A DNA stretch of 64,000 nt from Caldilineaceae bacterium (GTDB taxonomy: Bacteria; Chloroflexota; Anaerolineae; Caldilineales; Caldilineaceae), in the NCBI GenBank assembly GCA_020846635.1, contig JADLDO010000020.1, positions 248,001 to 312,000 on the forward strand, written 5' to 3'. Below, piece after piece: positions 13,669-64,000 of this stretch. Under the pieces are notes generated by a model that had not been told where the DNA came from, did no database searches, and was given only the letters and a program-made list of their open reading frames with translations. A program made the position numbers and the translations under genes. Every line of letters begins with the position of its first letter. The first letter of the stretch is position 1.

Positions 13669-13715
13669 CCCTAACCTCTGTGTACTATTCCGTGTACTAT
13701 GAGGTGTACTATGAG

Positions 13716-38947: not shown

Positions 38948-41581
38948 CTACCAATGAAGTGACAAGCCGCTGCCGGTTTCGGTGGCGGCTTTTGTTTGAT
39001 CTTTTTCAGGCTGTTCATGCCCACCGGCGATGAGCAGGGCCAACGCTGCCCAATTCCACCCTGCCAGCGGAGGCAGCGCTTGGAAGGCGTCCATCTGGGC
39101 ATGGGCCGCGGCCGCGATCAGCCCTGTCAACAGGCCTATTTGCAGCCATGTTAACCTATGCCGCTTCTGCTGCGTCCAATCATAGACGAGCAGCCCAACC
39201 GCCAGCAGCCATAGAAGCGCCAGTAGCCCGCCGCTGGTCACGATTTCCAGCCAGAGAAGATGCGGATGGCGCAGGTTGGGGTCAGCATTGGAGGTGAGCG
39301 ATAGATACGCCGGAAAGCTCCACCAAAAGCCATCTGGCCCCACGCCAAACAGGAAATGGTCGAACCAAAGCGCAACAGAGGGGAGCCAGCCGTCCACGCG
39401 CGCCATCAAGGTGGCAATGTTCATCAGGCGCGCCCGCCATATCCACAGCACAATCGCCAGCCCTATCCCCGCGGCTGCCAACAATCCCGCCAGCACGCGG
39501 CGCGACGGCAGTCGTATGGTGTGATGGCTCAGGAGGAACAACATCCCGGCAGGCAGCCCCAGAAGCACTGCGCCGCGACTGCCCGTTAGGAACAACGCAG
39601 CGCCCGTTGCGATGGCCCCCACACCCCACTGCCACCTCGCTCTGCCTCTACTCATCAGCGTGAGCCCGACGGTGATGGCAAGGGTTCTAATGAGGTAGAG
39701 CGCAGTATGGTTGGATGAGAAAGCGGGGCCTGTCAGGCGGCGCATGCCATCCACTGCGGTTCCACCCCCTTGCAGCCAGTCGATAAGACCGAAAGCAGTG
39801 AGCAGCAGACCTCCCGCCGCAAGCGCCACAACCAAGATGTGGGTGCGATGCAGGGTTGTGGACCAGGTGCGGATGAGCAGAAAGAGCAGGACAGGAACAA
39901 TGACCAGGTCGAGCATCCCGCGCCAGTAGGCCGGCCAATACCAGACGCCCGTTGCACTCAACGCCATGACCAGCACCCAACTCAACGCCACGCCAAGCCA
40001 GTGGTCGCGGGGGGGCGCTTTTGGGCGTTGCAGCCAGATTGCAGGCAGCAGGCAGAGCAGGGCCGCTTGTGTGGGGGGGATGGTCCAGCGCTGATCCAGC
40101 CAGACGAACTCCTTGTGATAATCGTGGAAGGGCAGCAGCGCCAATGTCAAGGCCAGCCCCAAACGGGGTTGTGCGGCAAAGCCGAGCGCGGTGATGGCCC
40201 AACAGAGCAAGATCAGCGGAGGCCACTCGGCAAGGTAGTAGACAAGCAGGAGCAGCGCCCAACCTGCTCCCCGCTGCCATGCTGGACGACTGAGCCACTG
40301 CGCTTGCCACTGTCCCCACGGCAGCATCCGGGCGGCAGCCATGCCACGCCAGAGCAACCCCACCACGGCAAGCCCCCAGAGCGCGACAGGTGTCCACAGG
40401 GCAAGCGCAGGCGCAGGCAGGCTGCGCGGGCGCGGCTGGTTAAAGAGGGCGGTTGATGTAGTGCGGAAGGCTTCTGCCAGTTGCGGCGTGAGGGCAAAGC
40501 CTGTTGTGGCACTGGTGAGCGGGGGTGTTGCTGCGGGCCAGCCCATCGCCACGACCCAGGGCCACTCATGATAGGCCATCTCCAGCGCGGCGACGGCAAA
40601 GATGCGCTGCTGCTCGGCGCTGACACTCTTCCAGGCTGTGCCGGGCAGACGATTCCAGCCATAGCGGATCAGCCAAATCGGAGTTTCTCCATCGCCGGCG
40701 CCGAGCATGGTTTGGCGTACCAACAGTGTGCGTCGTAAATTGAGCGCGCGACGGTCGACACGCGGGTCGTCCGGCCGCGTGGCAAAGCCAAAAGGCTGGA
40801 TGGCTACGCCGTCGAAATAGGGTGCGGCTCCCGCGGCATAAAGACGGTTCAGAAAATAGCGTTCGTCTTGGGCCAGGTGGCCGCGGTCGGAAGTCGGGGC
40901 CAGCGCAGCCAGCAGGATTTGTGCGTCGGCGTCTGTTTCGCGAATGGCCGAAGCTGCGGCTTTGAGCAGGCGCGCATAGTTCACCGGCTCGATATGGCTC
41001 TCGCCCCAATGGGGTGCGATATTGGGTTCATCCCAAATTTGATAGGTCTGCACCTGGTCGCCATAGCGCAGAGCTACGGCTTTGGCAAAGCGGGCGAAGG
41101 TGGTCGGGTCGGCAGGGGGGGCAAGCGGGCCATTGATGCTGTTCCGGTCATTGGGCGCACGTACCCACAGGGGGCTGCCATCCAACAAGAGAATAGGAAC
41201 CAGTTTGGCTTCATCAAGCAGGGCGAGGGCGCGGTCAACCTGCTGCCATTGATAGTCGCCGGGCGACGGCTCGATCTGGTCCCATGCCAGCCGGATTCGT
41301 GCCCAGCCAAAGCCCGCTGTAACCAATTCTTTCAGATCGCTGTTTGGATCGGTTTGTGATAACGTTGCGAGATCGAGGTTGATGCCCAGAAAAGGCAGTG
41401 AACTGGGGGGCGGCAGCGGGTGATGGATCAGGAAGGGGCTGGGGAGCCCGATGGTTTGGTCACGTAGCTGGCGCTGGGCCAGGTCAATCTGGGCGAGAAC
41501 CAGGCAAATCGCTGCGAAGATGAGCAGCAGCCGCAGCAGGGCCAGCGCAAAAGAGATCCTCGAACGGTGCGATGAGGGCAT
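38948..41581 (-). CDS. Glycoside-hydrolase-like / O-antigen ligase (Wzy/WaaL-type) fusion protein
   Basis: An 877-residue protein. After an N-terminal membrane segment, residues about 50-370 form a clan-A glycosidase-like barrel (WARIRLAWDQIEPSPGDYQW; the acid/base-type motif WDEPN near residue 183). Where such enzymes have the nucleophile in a TE-GW strand, this protein reads LIRYGWN (about 305), so the nucleophile Glu appears to be Arg and the barrel may only bind glycan. Residues about 385-870 are a polytopic domain with O-antigen ligase marks: SSNHTALYLIRTL, TGSRGAVLLGLPAG and HPHLLWLEIVTSGGL. It probably acts in surface-polysaccharide polymerisation or ligation. It starts 14 bases after the CHAT gene, so the two are likely co-transcribed. 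Confidence 0.82.
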   Translation of the reverse strand: MPSSHRSRISFALALLRLLLIFAAICLVLAQIDLAQRQLRDQTIGLPSPFLIHHPLPPPSSLPFLGINLDLATLSQTDPNSDLKELVTAGFGWARIRLAWDQIEPSPGDYQWQQVDRALALLDEAKLVPILLLDGSPLWVRAPNDRNSINGPLAPPADPTTFARFAKAVALRYGDQVQTYQIWDEPNIAPHWGESHIEPVNYARLLKAAASAIRETDADAQILLAALAPTSDRGHLAQDERYFLNRLYAAGAAPYFDGVAIQPFGFATRPDDPRVDRRALNLRRTLLVRQTMLGAGDGETPIWLIRYGWNRLPGTAWKSVSAEQQRIFAVAALEMAYHEWPWVVAMGWPAATPPLTSATTGFALTPQLAEAFRTTSTALFNQPRPRSLPAPALALWTPVALWGLAVVGLLWRGMAAARMLPWGQWQAQWLSRPAWQRGAGWALLLLVYYLAEWPPLILLCWAITALGFAAQPRLGLALTLALLPFHDYHKEFVWLDQRWTIPPTQAALLCLLPAIWLQRPKAPPRDHWLGVALSWVLVMALSATGVWYWPAYWRGMLDLVIVPVLLFLLIRTWSTTLHRTHILVVALAAGGLLLTAFGLIDWLQGGGTAVDGMRRLTGPAFSSNHTALYLIRTLAITVGLTLMSRGRARWQWGVGAIATGAALFLTGSRGAVLLGLPAGMLFLLSHHTIRLPSRRVLAGLLAAAGIGLAIVLWIWRARLMNIATLMARVDGWLPSVALWFDHFLFGVGPDGFWWSFPAYLSLTSNADPNLRHPHLLWLEIVTSGGLLALLWLLAVGLLVYDWTQQKRHRLTWLQIGLLTGLIAAAAHAQMDAFQALPPLAGWNWAALALLIAGGHEQPEKDQTKAATETGSGLSLHW
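38964..38998 (+). terminator. Terminator of the lipoprotein gene, inside the convergent gene
   Basis: AAGCCGCTGCCG (38964-38975) pairs with CGGTGGCGGCTT (38980-38991) with two G-T wobbles, then TTTTGTTTG. The hairpin lies within the last codons of the opposite-strand gene. Confidence 0.65.
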
Positions 41582-59727: not shown

Positions 59728-60038
59728 TGCCCCAGAGGGCTCCTCAACACCGTTGAGGTATTGAAACAGCGGGCGGTTTTCGGCGAGGAATCCCCAATGT
59801 AAGAACGCGAGCAGCGAGGGGATTCCTCCCGTTGGTCGGAATGACCGCGGCGAGAGCATGTCAAAACGCCACTTTTGATATAGCTCTGGGATGGGAAAGA
59901 GTGTTTGGTGGGTGGGGTGACTACGCGTGCAAGGCGAGGGAACGGGGAAATAAAAATACGGGACCAGCCCACGCCACAATCTTTCAACTGTGACGTTCCC
60001 CCGAAGGGAAGAGTCCAGTCCCGTTTTTTCGCCGTATG
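59728..60038. other. Non-coding gap with two hairpins, between convergent genes
   Basis: 311 bases without a gene. A perfect 11-bp inverted repeat, GAGGAATCCCC / GGGGATTCCTC (59785-59795, 59818-59828), has a 22-base loop. Further right, ACGGGAC (59958-59964) pairs with GTCCCGT (60018-60024), enclosing a TTCCC/GGGAA hairpin and followed by six Ts. It probably terminates the rightward genes before the opposing integrase gene. No tRNA-like sequence was found. Confidence 0.55.
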
Positions 60039-61040
60039 CTACTCGTCAAATGGCACGAAGAGCGACAGCGGCGATACGAGATCAAGACGAATATCATCGA
60101 CCTCCAACAGCGTATATTCGTCGGTCTGCGAGTAACTCGCATGACCAAGCTGCCGCCGCAATAGGTCTGCCGACACCTTGTCGGGGCGACTGCGCCGGTA
60201 GTGCGTAGCAAAGGCGCGGCGTAAATCGTGCGGGCCAACGATCTGTTCGTCCAATGACGCCCGCGCAATTGCGTTTTTGACTACCTTGTAGATACCTTGA
60301 CCTGTCAGTCTCTCGCCGCGTTGCCCCATGAAGAGCGGGCCGTGGCTGCGCTCGATGGAATCCAGGTAGGCAACGATGATCTTTCCCGTCGCACAATCAA
60401 AGGCAGCATCCCGCTGGCCGTCCTTGTTGGCCCTGGTGCGCTTGCCCACCACGCTGGCGTGACCGGAATGGTCAGCCTCAACCACAACATTCTCCACGTT
60501 CAAATGTGATACTTCCGCCCGACGTAAGCCCATGCCCATGAGCATGGCAACGATAGCGCGATCCCGCAGTGGGTCACGTCCGTGACCAGCTACCTCAAGC
60601 AACTGGTGGAGTGACAAGACGCCCACAGCCTTGCGCTTGGGCGGTCCTCCATCCGCGCTGGGGACCCACTTGGTATAGTCCCGCTCAACATAGCCCGCAT
60701 CAAACGCCCAGCGAAACATCTCTTTGATCCGCTTAATGATGGTGGCGCGGGTATGGTAAGCGATCTGTCGTTTTGTGTAAGGCGATATGGCGGTCCTCAA
60801 ATATCGCTCGAACAAGACGAAATCATCTGGCTTCAGCAGCCATTCGCGCGGAGGCCCTTCCGCCTCCCACCAGTCCGTGAACCAGCGCAGTTGGTATTCA
60901 TAGCCATCGACAGTTAGCTGGTTATCCATCCTCGCACGACGACGCCGGATGTACTCGCCAATCAGCCAATTCAGATGGCGAGCATCCAACACAGCAACGC
61001 GCGGCTCACGACGGATCGCGCCTACGTCCGCAGACAACAT
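60039..61040 (-). CDS. Tyrosine recombinase/integrase
   Basis: 333 residues from ATG 61040, which has GGAGG six bases upstream. The N-terminal SAM-like core-binding domain (about 20-120) is followed by the catalytic domain with Arg in GMGLRRAEVSHL (about 170), the HxxR box PHDLRRAFATHY (about 271), LGHASYSQTDEY with the second His and the nucleophile Tyr (about 307). It closely follows the XerC/phage-integrase pattern and is intact. It probably catalyses insertion and excision of the element that begins near here. Confidence 0.93.
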   Translation of the reverse strand: MLSADVGAIRREPRVAVLDARHLNWLIGEYIRRRRARMDNQLTVDGYEYQLRWFTDWWEAEGPPREWLLKPDDFVLFERYLRTAISPYTKRQIAYHTRATIIKRIKEMFRWAFDAGYVERDYTKWVPSADGGPPKRKAVGVLSLHQLLEVAGHGRDPLRDRAIVAMLMGMGLRRAEVSHLNVENVVVEADHSGHASVVGKRTRANKDGQRDAAFDCATGKIIVAYLDSIERSHGPLFMGQRGERLTGQGIYKVVKNAIARASLDEQIVGPHDLRRAFATHYRRSRPDKVSADLLRRQLGHASYSQTDEYTLLEVDDIRLDLVSPLSLFVPFDE

Positions 61041-61215
61041 TACATTCCTCCATTTGCTAGGGTTCTTCACCACGAGGGTTGCGGCTTGATGATCCCGACG
61101 CAAATTCGGTGCAGGTCGCTATTAGCAGTAGCGGCCTACGTTGTTTGTCCTATTTAGTTGTACGTCAAACGGGTTACCAGGCCCGACACACGCACTATAG
61201 CAAGGAATCTGCTCC

Positions 61216-61476
61216 ATGTCTACGAAATTCCGAATTATCGCGGCTGTTTGGGGTGCAATTTGGGCACTCTGCCTACAAAGGACGCAGTGGGGGCGCTGGC
61301 TGGCGCTGCATCGTACCTGGCTGACGGTCGTGGTTGGCGTCGGTGTCAACCTCGCAATCCTCTGTTTCGTGCTGCCACGCAACCTCTGGCTACGCGCCTT
61401 CGAGGTCTTTGCGCTCTCCAGTGTGGGCGTCATTATACGGAGCCTCATCAATGAGTATCGGAACGATGCCGCCTAA
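61216..61476 (+). CDS. Small membrane protein, paralogue of the one at 58282
   Basis: An 86-residue protein starting at ATG 61216. A short basic N-terminus and two to three hydrophobic helices are visible, with TWLTVVVGVGVN and IIRSLINEY shared with the 58282 protein. Its end overlaps the next start by 11 bases (ATGCCGCCTAA). It is the first gene rightward from the integrase, in the likely early operon. Confidence 0.65.
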   Translation: MSTKFRIIAAVWGAIWALCLQRTQWGRWLALHRTWLTVVVGVGVNLAILCFVLPRNLWLRAFEVFALSSVGVIIRSLINEYRNDAA

Positions 61477-61762
61477 GAAGCGGGGCGAATACAAGCCCCG
61501 GCTTGCCACAACCACCAAGACTCATCTCGACACCATCGTTGACAGAAGCGTGAGCGGTCACAGCCACCTACGAGAAATCGTAGAGTGGCTCAACTGCGAA
61601 CGCACCGCCGCAAAGATGAACATGGACAAGGCAAGACAGGCACGCGCCGGCGAACTCAGCCACGCCGTGGCCCAACTGGCATTGGATTGGGCCGACATCG
61701 AACGCGCCGCACGCGAAGCACGCGACGGCAAGATTGTGGATACGAAGGAAAAGGAAACATGA
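61466..61762 (+). CDS. Small hydrophilic protein of unknown function
   Basis: A 98-residue protein, Lys/Arg/Glu/Ala-rich and mostly helical. I choose ATG 61466 because it overlaps the preceding stop; ATG 61451 is also possible. The N-terminus is basic (MPPKKRGEYKPR), and a helical region with alternating Ala/Arg/Glu follows. It could be a small DNA-binding or regulatory phage protein, but no motif proves this. Confidence 0.55.
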   Translation: MPPKKRGEYKPRLATTTKTHLDTIVDRSVSGHSHLREIVEWLNCERTAAKMNMDKARQARAGELSHAVAQLALDWADIERAAREARDGKIVDTKEKET

Positions 61763-61805
61763 CAGACGCAATCCCCCGCGGGAGTGGTACGGAGGAGGGG
61801 TAGGT

Positions 61806-62828
61806 ATGGCAAAAGGCAAGAGAGCCAGAGCAGAAGAAGACATTGAGGTCAACGATGGGAGAGAGTTCCCCTTCTTCATCATCGGCAATGCCCTGATTAC
61901 TGACTACGGCGCAAAGATAGGTGCGTATGGAGTAGCTGTCTACAACGTGCTTGCCATGTATGCAGGGCAGAGCGACAAGTCGTGGCCTTCCTACCAGAAG
62001 ATCGCAGACCTGATAGGGATCAGCAGGCAGAAGGCATTTGACACAGTTGCCCTGTTGGTAGACCTGGGGTTAGTCACCAAGAAAAATCGCTATAACGATT
62101 CCGGTGATAAGACCTCAAACCTCTACACCCTAACCAAGCAAGCGGCATGGGGTAGTACACAGGATAGACTACCCCCTAGTACACCACATGGACTACCCCT
62201 AGTACACGACATAGACTACCGTAGTCCACACGGTGTACATGATCAAGACTCATTGAACAATACTCAATTGGAACAAGAAGAGAGAGAGGGCGCGAGCGCC
62301 CAGCCCTCCCCCCCGCCTTCGTCGCCTGCTCACGAAGTGGATGTTGAGTTCATGGCGGACGTTCCACCCACACACCCCATTCCAGAAAAAGCGTCACCAC
62401 CCACTAAAGCGCCGCGCGGCGCGTGCAAGCTTCAACTGCTCAACGGCAAGATTCCGGCGGGGACGGGCGACAGGCCCGACCGCGTCTACCACGAGATCCA
62501 CCCATTGGATGACGACCGCTGCAAACTCAATGACGCGCAGCGCAAGGCCATCGAGGCAACGGTCACAGATCTCCTGCTCTGGCGCGAGGTCGTCATCGCC
62601 TGGGCATTGGCAGGCAACAAACCAACCAACATCCGCGGCCAACTCGACTGGTATCGAGATCCCAGCCGCTTCAGAAAGGAGAACCACCATGCAGGCACTG
62701 GCGGACATAATGGAGCGAATCGTTCCGGTAACGGCACCTACCAGCCCCCCGAAGCCGCACCCTTCACCCAGGAACAATGGCGCGAGTGGCTGGCAAACCG
62801 ACCCCCCGAAGAAATCCCGCCCTACTGA
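61806..62828 (+). CDS. Phage/plasmid-type replication initiator with winged-helix domain
   Basis: 340 residues from ATG 61806, preceded by GGAGGAGGGG. The N-terminal region (about 20-110) holds a helix-turn-helix, SYQKIADLIGISRQKAFDTV, followed by LVDLGLVTKK, as in phage replication and DnaD-like proteins. A disordered Ser/Pro/Thr/Glu-rich linker (about 115-190) is encoded by DNA with direct repeats (62153-62241), and a C-terminal helical domain follows. The end overlaps the helicase-loader gene by 140 bases in another frame. The arrangement resembles lambda O, whose gene contains the origin iterons, next to P. Confidence 0.75.
   Translation: MAKGKRARAEEDIEVNDGREFPFFIIGNALITDYGAKIGAYGVAVYNVLAMYAGQSDKSWPSYQKIADLIGISRQKAFDTVALLVDLGLVTKKNRYNDSGDKTSNLYTLTKQAAWGSTQDRLPPSTPHGLPLVHDIDYRSPHGVHDQDSLNNTQLEQEEREGASAQPSPPPSSPAHEVDVEFMADVPPTHPIPEKASPPTKAPRGACKLQLLNGKIPAGTGDRPDRVYHEIHPLDDDRCKLNDAQRKAIEATVTDLLLWREVVIAWALAGNKPTNIRGQLDWYRDPSRFRKENHHAGTGGHNGANRSGNGTYQPPEAAPFTQEQWREWLANRPPEEIPPY
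62153..62241 (+). repeat. Iteron-like direct repeats inside the initiator gene (candidate origin)
   Basis: Three direct repeats start at 62153, 62177 and 62200: TAGTACAC, three to four variable bases, AT(A/G)GACTACC plus Cs, spaced 24 and 23 bases. A fourth, partial copy (TAGTCCAC) begins 22 bases later at 62222 and runs into GTGTAC. Each unit is also partly palindromic (GTAGT...ACTAC). The host protein region is low-complexity linker, so the DNA rather than the peptide seems to be under selection. Confidence 0.7.
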
Positions 62829-63582
62829 TGGCTGCAAGTGCGGTGGCGCGGGGCATGTGCTGGTGGACGACGGCCACACCGGCAAGCTGGTGCGCTGCCC
62901 CGACTGCACCGACTGGCTGGCGCACAGCCGCCTCACGCCGGAGGAGCAGGCGCACACACTCGACGACATTGCCGACCGCGACGACGACAGCCGCGGCGAA
63001 ATGCTGGCGCTGCGCTTCCTGGGCAAAGAGATGCTGGCGGACCCGTTCGGCTTCCTGAGCATCTGGGGAAAAAAGGGCGGCGGCAAGTCGCTGCTGCTGA
63101 CCGCGTTGATTGCGGAGTTCTGCCGCGCTGGGCGCAACGCTCGTTACTTCAACGCCGGAGAGATCGTCTCCCTGCTCTCGCCGGGCGACGACAAGGAGAT
63201 CGACGGCTTCCGCCATGTAGCAGGCAACCCCGATGCGTGCAAGGCAGCGTTGAAGGCAGTGCCGGTACTGGCAATCGACGAGGTAGACAAGCTCAAATGG
63301 ACGGCCTGGCAGGTGCAGCAAATTGGCGAAGTAATCGAACATCGCCATCGCCATGCCGAAAGCTTGGTCACGCTCTTTGCCATGAATCGCCCACCCTGGG
63401 AATGGCAGAACGCCGGGGAGGTGGAGCACATCGCCAGCCGCCTGAGCGATGGCCGGTTCTATCGCCGCTGGCCCGACGACAAGCTGCGCTGGCTGCCCAA
63501 GTGCGCGGGTAGCAAGCCGGAACTGCCGGGGCTGTTCGAAGTAACGCTGGCCGACATTCGACCCAGACTGCGAAGGTGGTGA
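62689..63582 (+). CDS. DnaC-like helicase loader ATPase
   Basis: 297 residues from ATG 62689, which has AGAAAGGAGA ahead and lies inside the end of the initiator gene. The N-terminus has a possible zinc site (CKC...CPDC at about 49-73). An AAA+ core follows: Walker A GKKGGGKS (about 127-134), Walker B VLAIDEVD (about 192-199), sensor region LVTLFAMNRPP and an Arg-containing HIASRLSDGRFY. It resembles DnaC/DnaI/IstB ATPases and probably loads the replicative helicase at the adjacent iterons. Confidence 0.85.
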   Translation: MQALADIMERIVPVTAPTSPPKPHPSPRNNGASGWQTDPPKKSRPTDGCKCGGAGHVLVDDGHTGKLVRCPDCTDWLAHSRLTPEEQAHTLDDIADRDDDSRGEMLALRFLGKEMLADPFGFLSIWGKKGGGKSLLLTALIAEFCRAGRNARYFNAGEIVSLLSPGDDKEIDGFRHVAGNPDACKAALKAVPVLAIDEVDKLKWTAWQVQQIGEVIEHRHRHAESLVTLFAMNRPPWEWQNAGEVEHIASRLSDGRFYRRWPDDKLRWLPKCAGSKPELPGLFEVTLADIRPRLRRW

Positions 63583-63586
63583 CGCG

Positions 63587-64000
63587 ATGGACTATCAGAT
63601 CTACCAGGGTGATTGCATCGAGACAATGCGCGGGATTGAGCCTGGCACCGTGCAAACCTGTGTCACGTCGCCACCCTATTTTGGACTTCGTGACTATCAA
63701 ACTGCGACCTGGGAGGGCGGCGATCCTGGGTGCGACCATAAGCCGAGCAGCACACCGGGCCGACGCGGTCTGGCGTCATCCACACTGGCCGGCGGCAAGG
63801 CTACAACGGGCTGCTTGCAGACAGGTTATGGAGGAATATGCCCTCGCTGTGGTGCTATACGTATTGACCAGCAAATCGGCCTGGAAGACACACCCGACGC
63901 CTACGTTGCCAAATTGGTTGACGTGTTCCGCGAGGTGCGTCGGCTGCTGCGCGACGATGGCACGCTCTGGCTTAACCTCGGAGACAGCTACAACGGGAGT
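63587..64000 (+). CDS. DNA methyltransferase (N4-cytosine/N6-adenine type), partial
   Basis: The first 138 residues only; the window ends inside the gene. The catalytic motif TSPPY is at residues 27-31, followed by a Cys/His insertion (CDH near 49, CPRC near 95) that looks like a zinc ribbon, and then the LVDVFREVRRLLRDDGTLWLNLGDSY region with the SAM-binding strand. This layout is common among prophage and mobile-element methyltransferases. The target-recognition part and any cognate nuclease lie outside the window. It starts 4 bases after the helicase-loader stop. Confidence 0.85.
   Translation, partial: MDYQIYQGDCIETMRGIEPGTVQTCVTSPPYFGLRDYQTATWEGGDPGCDHKPSSTPGRRGLASSTLAGGKATTGCLQTGYGGICPRCGAIRIDQQIGLEDTPDAYVAKLVDVFREVRRLLRDDGTLWLNLGDSYNGS

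What the first reader, a model, noticed from the sequence alone, without database searches (positions are those of the whole stretch)
62153..62241. Candidate replication origin: iterons inside the initiator gene
Three and a half direct repeats of 22-24 bp with a conserved 5' half (TAGTACAC) and 3' half (GACTACC) fall in the low-complexity linker of a winged-helix initiator, and the next gene is a DnaC-like loader. This is the lambda O/P layout in an otherwise unrelated element.
Basis: partly seen in the sequence, partly recalled or inferred. Interest (0 to 1): 0.65.

Follow-up and report, generated by a model that had tools for sequence, protein, structure and literature searches.

The report
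Lambda-type replication origin inside initiator gene
A phage-like mobile element in a Chloroflexota bacterium carries, inside the gene for its replication starter protein, four short repeated sites followed at once by an easily melted stretch; this is the layout of the phage lambda replication origin, and relatives keep the layout while the repeat sequence itself changes.

Summary
There are four iterons, not three and a half: three direct (62155-62172, 62179-62196, 62202-62219) and one inverted (62221-62238). They are the only four perfect GTACACNNNNNRGACTAC sites in the 6.85-Mb genome. They repeat at the DNA level: 0 of 300 synonymous-codon shuffles reach the observed score, and 19 of 27 direct repeat pairs are out of frame. 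The least stable 45 bp of 60000-64000 starts at 62236, directly after the array. The gene encodes a winged-helix protein matching O-like PHROG families, and a DnaC-like loader follows.

Comparison supports an origin. In 59 of 69 non-redundant homologs the densest repeats lie inside the initiator gene. The window and its five closest relatives all have iterons about 21-24 bp apart followed by an A-rich segment, but the iteron sequences differ. Annotated lambda ori matches: four 18-bp iterons over 85 bp against 84 bp here.

Verdict: a lambda-type in-gene replication origin, a new member of a known kind. Binding and unwinding were not tested.

The parts
61806..62828 (+). O-like replication initiator (340 aa): winged helix about residues 20-110, linker, C-terminal domain
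   Evidence: phrog_270 1.2e-13, phrog_391 'O-like' 1.2e-10; HTH_36 8.6e-5, below Pfam cut-off; predicted winged helix, pLDDT 81, pTM 0.72; best BFVD fold match is a phage replicon initiation protein
62155..62172 (+). iteron 1 core GTACACAGGATAGACTAC (unit 62153-62175)
62179..62196 (+). iteron 2 core GTACACCACATGGACTAC (unit 62177-62199)
62202..62219 (+). iteron 3 core GTACACGACATAGACTAC (unit 62200-62222), read in a different frame from iterons 1 and 2
62221..62238 (-). iteron 4 core, inverted (GTACACCGTGTGGACTAC on the minus strand)
   Evidence: I5; perfect match
62236..62286 (.). candidate unwinding element: A-rich, three approximate 14-16-bp units GATCAAGACTCATT / GAACAATACTCAATTG / GAACAAGAAGAGAG
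   Evidence: least stable 45 bp of 60000-64000 starts at 62236, 99.8th percentile of the window; TRF 14-bp array 62240-62278; top strand 21 A against 8 T
62689..63582 (+). DnaC-like helicase loader (start codon inferred; overlaps the end of the initiator gene in another frame)
   Evidence: phrog_50 2.3e-8 and phrog_3277 2.7e-6, DnaC-like helicase loader; IstB/AAA below cut-off
60039..61103 (-). tyrosine integrase at the presumed edge of the element
   Evidence: PF00589 1.8e-17
63587..64000 (+). N6/N4 DNA methyltransferase (runs on past the window)
   Evidence: PF01555 7e-53 for the whole protein

Best explanation
This is the replication origin of an integrated phage-like element, of the phage lambda type. 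The gene at 61806-62828 makes an O-like initiator. Its winged-helix domain, probably as dimers because each iteron has partial dyad symmetry, binds the four iterons that lie in its own coding sequence. The iterons are spaced about two helical turns apart, so the bound proteins would stack into an O-some-like complex. That complex strains the DNA and opens the A-rich segment 62236-62286. The initiator's C-terminal domain then recruits the DnaC-like loader encoded next door, which places the host DnaB helicase on the opened strands. Shown here: the sequence elements, their DNA-level constraint, the melting minimum, and conserved layout with diverging iterons. Inferred: binding, dimerisation, unwinding, loader contact and helicase loading.
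For: Four perfect sites in 6.85 Mb, all within 84 bp. DNA-level repetition: score 31 against 7.1 +/- 2.5, 0 of 300 synonymous shuffles. Least stable 45 bp of the surrounding 4 kb starts at 62236. The same adjacency holds in lambda, L058, L059 and L006. Annotated lambda ori has four 18-bp iterons at 20, 24, 23 spacing, against 24, 23, 19 here. In 59 of 69 non-redundant homologs the densest repeat window is inside the initiator ORF, which is on average 24% of each locus. 55 of 67 exceed all synonymous shuffles. 42 of 51 have a dominant repeat distance of 18-25 or 42-46 bp. O-like PHROG matches and DnaC-like neighbour. Lambda O binds its 18-bp dyad iterons as dimers and strains the adjacent AT-rich region (PMC6022878; PMC5043065).
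Against: No binding, unwinding or replication data. Dyad symmetry of each iteron is imperfect (19 symmetric pairs against 14.4 in shuffles, p = 0.003). The segment is only about 64% A+T, against 76% in lambda. In L057 the least stable segment lies 83 bp beyond the iterons rather than next to them. Ten of 69 homologs do not have their densest repeats in the gene, two of which look like GntR regulators. The contig ends about 11 kb past the window, so the whole element was not seen.
Confidence: 0.9

Rival explanations
1. The repeats are operators: the protein binds them to regulate its own gene or the downstream genes, and replication starts elsewhere.
For: The fold matches many MarR-type and other winged-helix regulators. 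Palindromic sites suit a repressor.
Against: The array sits about 350 bp inside the gene, not at a promoter, and no plus-strand promoter-like site was found nearby. A melting minimum adjoins the array. Homologs with other iteron sequences keep both parts. The protein's best family matches are replication initiators.
Confidence: 0.05
2. The DNA repeats are a by-product of repetition in a low-complexity protein linker with no role as DNA.
For: The linker is low complexity, and in many gamma-proteobacterial relatives most repeat pairs are in frame.
Against: Synonymous shuffles never reach the window's score; copy 3 is in another frame and copy 4 is inverted. 55 of 67 homologs also exceed all shuffles.
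Confidence: 0.02
3. It was a functional origin, but the integrated element is now defective, so the origin is a relic.
For: The element lies in a chromosomal contig and its far end was not seen.
Against: Integrase, initiator, loader and methyltransferase are all open reading frames, and the iterons match perfectly at their core.
Confidence: 0.15

Closest known systems
Phage lambda origin (ori-lambda) inside gene O
   Same: Origin inside the initiator gene just after the DNA-binding domain; four 18-bp iterons with dyad symmetry over 84-85 bp; strand-asymmetric A-rich segment directly downstream; helicase-loader gene next (PMC6022878, PMC4488673).
   Different: Iteron sequence is unrelated (lambda ATCCCTCAAAACGAGGGA); the fourth iteron is inverted; the A-rich segment is less A+T-rich (0.64 against 0.76); the loader is DnaC/IstB-like AAA+, while lambda uses P.
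Origins of Shiga-phage O genes (P27, 933W)
   Same: Iterons plus AT-rich tract in the middle of O (PMC7466680).
   Different: Six iterons with lambda-like sequence; enterobacterial hosts.
Iteron plasmids (RK2, F, P1)
   Same: Iteron array next to an A+T-rich element with short repeats; RK2 TrfA binds one strand of its 13-mers (PMC4081077).
   Different: The match here is to phage O-like families and not to plasmid Rep families; plasmid iterons bind monomeric initiators (PMC5043065).
DnaD-type phage replisome organisers
   Same: Winged-helix fold related to the DnaD N-terminal domain (2vn2 E = 0.002; 2v79) and weaker phrog_186 and phrog_7882 matches.
   Different: O-like PHROG matches are stronger.

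Membership tests
Lambda-type in-gene origin (O/ori module) | Iteron array inside the initiator's own gene, after the DNA-binding domain | tested here: met
Lambda-type in-gene origin (O/ori module) | About four iterons of 18-20 bp spaced about two helical turns | tested here: met
   Cores of 18 bp, spacing 24, 23, 19; lambda 20, 24, 23
Lambda-type in-gene origin (O/ori module) | Dyad symmetry within each iteron | tested here: met
   Partial: 19 symmetric pairs against 14.4 in shuffles, p = 0.003
Lambda-type in-gene origin (O/ori module) | Adjacent A+T-rich, strand-asymmetric unwinding segment | tested here: met
Lambda-type in-gene origin (O/ori module) | Initiator related to O proteins | tested here: met
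   PHROG O-like families 391 and 8540; fold match to protein O of phage Min27. No match to a Pfam O family; only HTH_36 below cut-off
Lambda-type in-gene origin (O/ori module) | Helicase-loader gene directly downstream | tested here: met
   DnaC-like loader
Lambda O/P module in the strict sense | Loader homologous to lambda P | tested here: inconclusive
   The loader matches DnaC-like PHROGs and AAA/IstB models, none named P; no direct comparison with lambda P was made
Lambda-type in-gene origin (O/ori module) | Initiator binds iterons and opens the A+T-rich segment | not testable with these tools
   needs footprinting and unwinding assays
Lambda-type in-gene origin (O/ori module) | Requirement for transcription near the origin | not tested
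   known for lambda (PMC5043065); no expression data here
Iteron plasmid replicon | Rep protein of a plasmid iteron-initiator family | tested here: not met
   No plasmid Rep family among Pfam, PHROGs or NCBIfam matches

The most novel reading that the evidence does not exclude
The A-rich segment is more than a passive melting site. In the window and close relatives it is built of 12-16-bp direct repeats (GAWCAAKAYYCA-like in four elements, in different reading frames in two of them) that stay recognisable while the iterons turn over. The initiator or loader would read these repeats as single strands, as TrfA reads the RK2 13-mers. A related idea is that winged helix, iterons and C-terminal loader-contact domain are exchanged as modules, as the second element in the same genome suggests.
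Probability: 0.3. Interest if true: 0.55.

Novelty: new member of a known kind. Interest (0 to 1): 0.42.

Why it matters
Lambda's origin has been called 'curiously' placed inside gene O (PMC4488673). The comparison here indicates that the placement is common among O-like initiators in distant hosts, including Chloroflexota, with kept geometry and changing iteron sequence. That gives a ready way to look for origins in uncultured phages (just after the winged helix of the O-like gene) and a natural set of initiator-iteron pairs for working out DNA recognition.

Tried and rejected
A viral-contig search with the whole window protein gave no relative; alignments were needed. An exact pair of the A-rich repeat motif as a DNA probe in viral-contig hit mostly unrelated places, with only one initiator among six, so it is not a usable signature. 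Across all homologs, matches to GAWCAAKAYYCA were only slightly above synonymous shuffles (43 against 32), so no general conserved unwinding motif is claimed. An automatic comparison of A+T content downstream of arrays gave no overall enrichment; its array-end detection often ran past the arrays, so only the hand-delimited arrays were used, which is a small set chosen after that negative result. L016 looked like a close homolog without significant repeats; direct inspection found three 18-bp iterons 23 and 22 bp apart, written as a pattern after seeing them. Rfam gave no match.

Full report
Setting. The window is positions 248001-312000 of contig C20 in a 6.85-Mb assembly. A genome of the same family (G037) carries an initiator identical to one in a contig titled Chloroflexota bacterium MAG29_KBP, so the host is taken to be a Chloroflexota bacterium (inference). 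The element holds a tyrosine integrase (60039-61103, minus strand), the initiator (61806-62828), a DnaC-like loader, an N6/N4 methyltransferase and, past the window, a polymerase beta-thumb protein, an HNH endonuclease, a ParA-like protein, a DUF3102 protein and a pyrophosphatase. The contig ends about 11 kb past the window, so whether it is a prophage or an integrated plasmid was not settled.

The repeats. Direct copies of 23 bp lie at 62153, 62177 and 62200, the strongest tandem array in the window. A fourth, inverted copy lies at 62221-62238. Pattern GTACACNNNNNRGACTAC has exactly four perfect matches in the whole genome, all here. The pattern was written after seeing the sites, so the count shows uniqueness rather than a test of significance. 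The significance tests are the next two.

DNA-level constraint. With the protein held constant and synonymous codons permuted, the repeat score in the gene falls from 31 to 7.1 +/- 2.5, and none of 300 permutations reaches it. Nineteen of 27 direct repeat pairs are out of frame. So this is repetition of DNA, not of protein.

Unwinding segment. Nearest-neighbour stability gives 62236-62280 as the least stable 45 bp between 60000 and 64000, and in the 99.8th percentile of the whole window. It is strand-asymmetric: 62241-62286 has 21 A and 8 T on the top strand, and the corresponding lambda segment 26 and 8. It consists of three approximate 14-16-bp units (and sequence).

Initiator and loader. 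The initiator matches PHROG replication-initiation families, including O-like ones. A six-member alignment gives a predicted winged helix with mean pLDDT 81 and pTM 0.72, whose best viral fold matches include a phage replicon initiation protein and protein O of phage Min27. The next gene matches DnaC-like helicase loaders. Its likely start, 62689, lies inside the end of the initiator gene (inference from the sequence).

Comparison. Homologs were collected from genomes of the phylum, viral contigs and genome contigs and reduced to 69 non-redundant loci including the window and lambda. In 59 the densest repeat window is centred inside the initiator ORF, which averages 24% of the locus, and in most it lies just after the winged helix. 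In 55 of 67 the score exceeds all 60 synonymous shuffles (300 for the window). In a subset of 51, from which loci with weak repeats had been left out, the dominant repeat distance is 18-25 or 42-46 bp in 42, that is two or four helical turns. The homolog set was gathered by sequence similarity and still contains related members, so these counts are not fully independent.

Close relatives. L006/L137, L057, L058, L059 and L016 share 34-47% identity with the window's winged-helix region. All carry iterons about 21-24 bp apart in the same linker, with different sequences: TAGTACAC..GACTACC (window), CATGCACCAGGTGCATG (L006), TAGTGACTCACAGACACTA (L057), TAGTTCCCCACAGGAACC (L058), CGTAGTGCACCACGTGA (L059) and CCCGTYYRYCACRCAAAC (L016). 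In the window, lambda, L058, L059 and L006 the least stable 45 bp of the gene begins within -5 to +11 bp of the array end; in L057 it begins 83 bp away. These array ends were set by hand. An automatic version over 52 loci showed no A+T enrichment downstream, so the adjacency is shown for this small set only.

Lambda as yardstick. The annotated lambda record has iterons at 39034-39051, 39054-39071, 39078-39095 and 39101-39118: four 18-bp sites over 85 bp, against four 18-bp cores over 84 bp here. Published work says lambda O binds each iteron as a dimer, that the array is followed by an AT-rich region which is strained and opened, and that both parts are needed (PMC6022878; PMC4488673; PMC5043065; PMC7466680).

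A second case in the same genome. Locus L005 carries an initiator with an unrelated N-terminal family (phrog_1408) and a DnaC-like loader. Its C-terminal stretch is 51% identical to the window's over 45 residues. Its linker also has palindromic CCACCTGG / CCAGGTGG repeats followed by AAATAAAGATC repeats. This suggests that DNA-binding domain, iterons and C-terminal domain can be exchanged as modules.

Limits. No binding, unwinding or replication was measured. The A-rich repeat motif is shared by four close relatives, but across all homologs it is not clearly above the synonymous null. In gamma-proteobacterial relatives a different sequence, ACCAGTCACTCTTT..GAACCAGTCAATGAACC, follows the arrays, the second part in two reading frames; its meaning is open.

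Conclusion. This is a lambda-type origin inside an O-like initiator gene, a new member of a known kind. The added value is the comparative evidence that placement and spacing are kept while iteron sequence changes.

Noticed in passing
L005:8273-9692 (G000:C27, end of contig): Second initiator plus DnaC-like loader pair in the same genome, with a different DNA-binding domain, similar C-terminal stretch, and its own palindromic repeats and A-rich repeats in the linker.
   Followed up: partly
62689-62828: The loader's likely start codon lies inside the initiator gene, giving an overlap of about 140 bp in another frame; the loader reading frame in L005 also starts inside its initiator gene.
   Followed up: no
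62288-62301: GC-rich hairpin GGGCGCGAGCGCCC directly after the A-rich segment.
   Followed up: no
L061, L063, L066, L084, L131 and other gamma-proteobacterial O-like loci, 200-380 bp after the match start: Conserved DNA ACCAGTCACTCTTT and GAACCAGTCAATGAACC after the iteron arrays, the second part in two reading frames.
   Followed up: partly
L016, after position 2352: In this close relative the gene after the initiator resembles a DnaB-type replicative helicase rather than a loader (read from the sequence).
   Followed up: no
13680-13715: Three tandem 12-bp copies of GTGTACTATGAG, which partly match the iteron pattern on the minus strand with 3 mismatches; probably chance.
   Followed up: no
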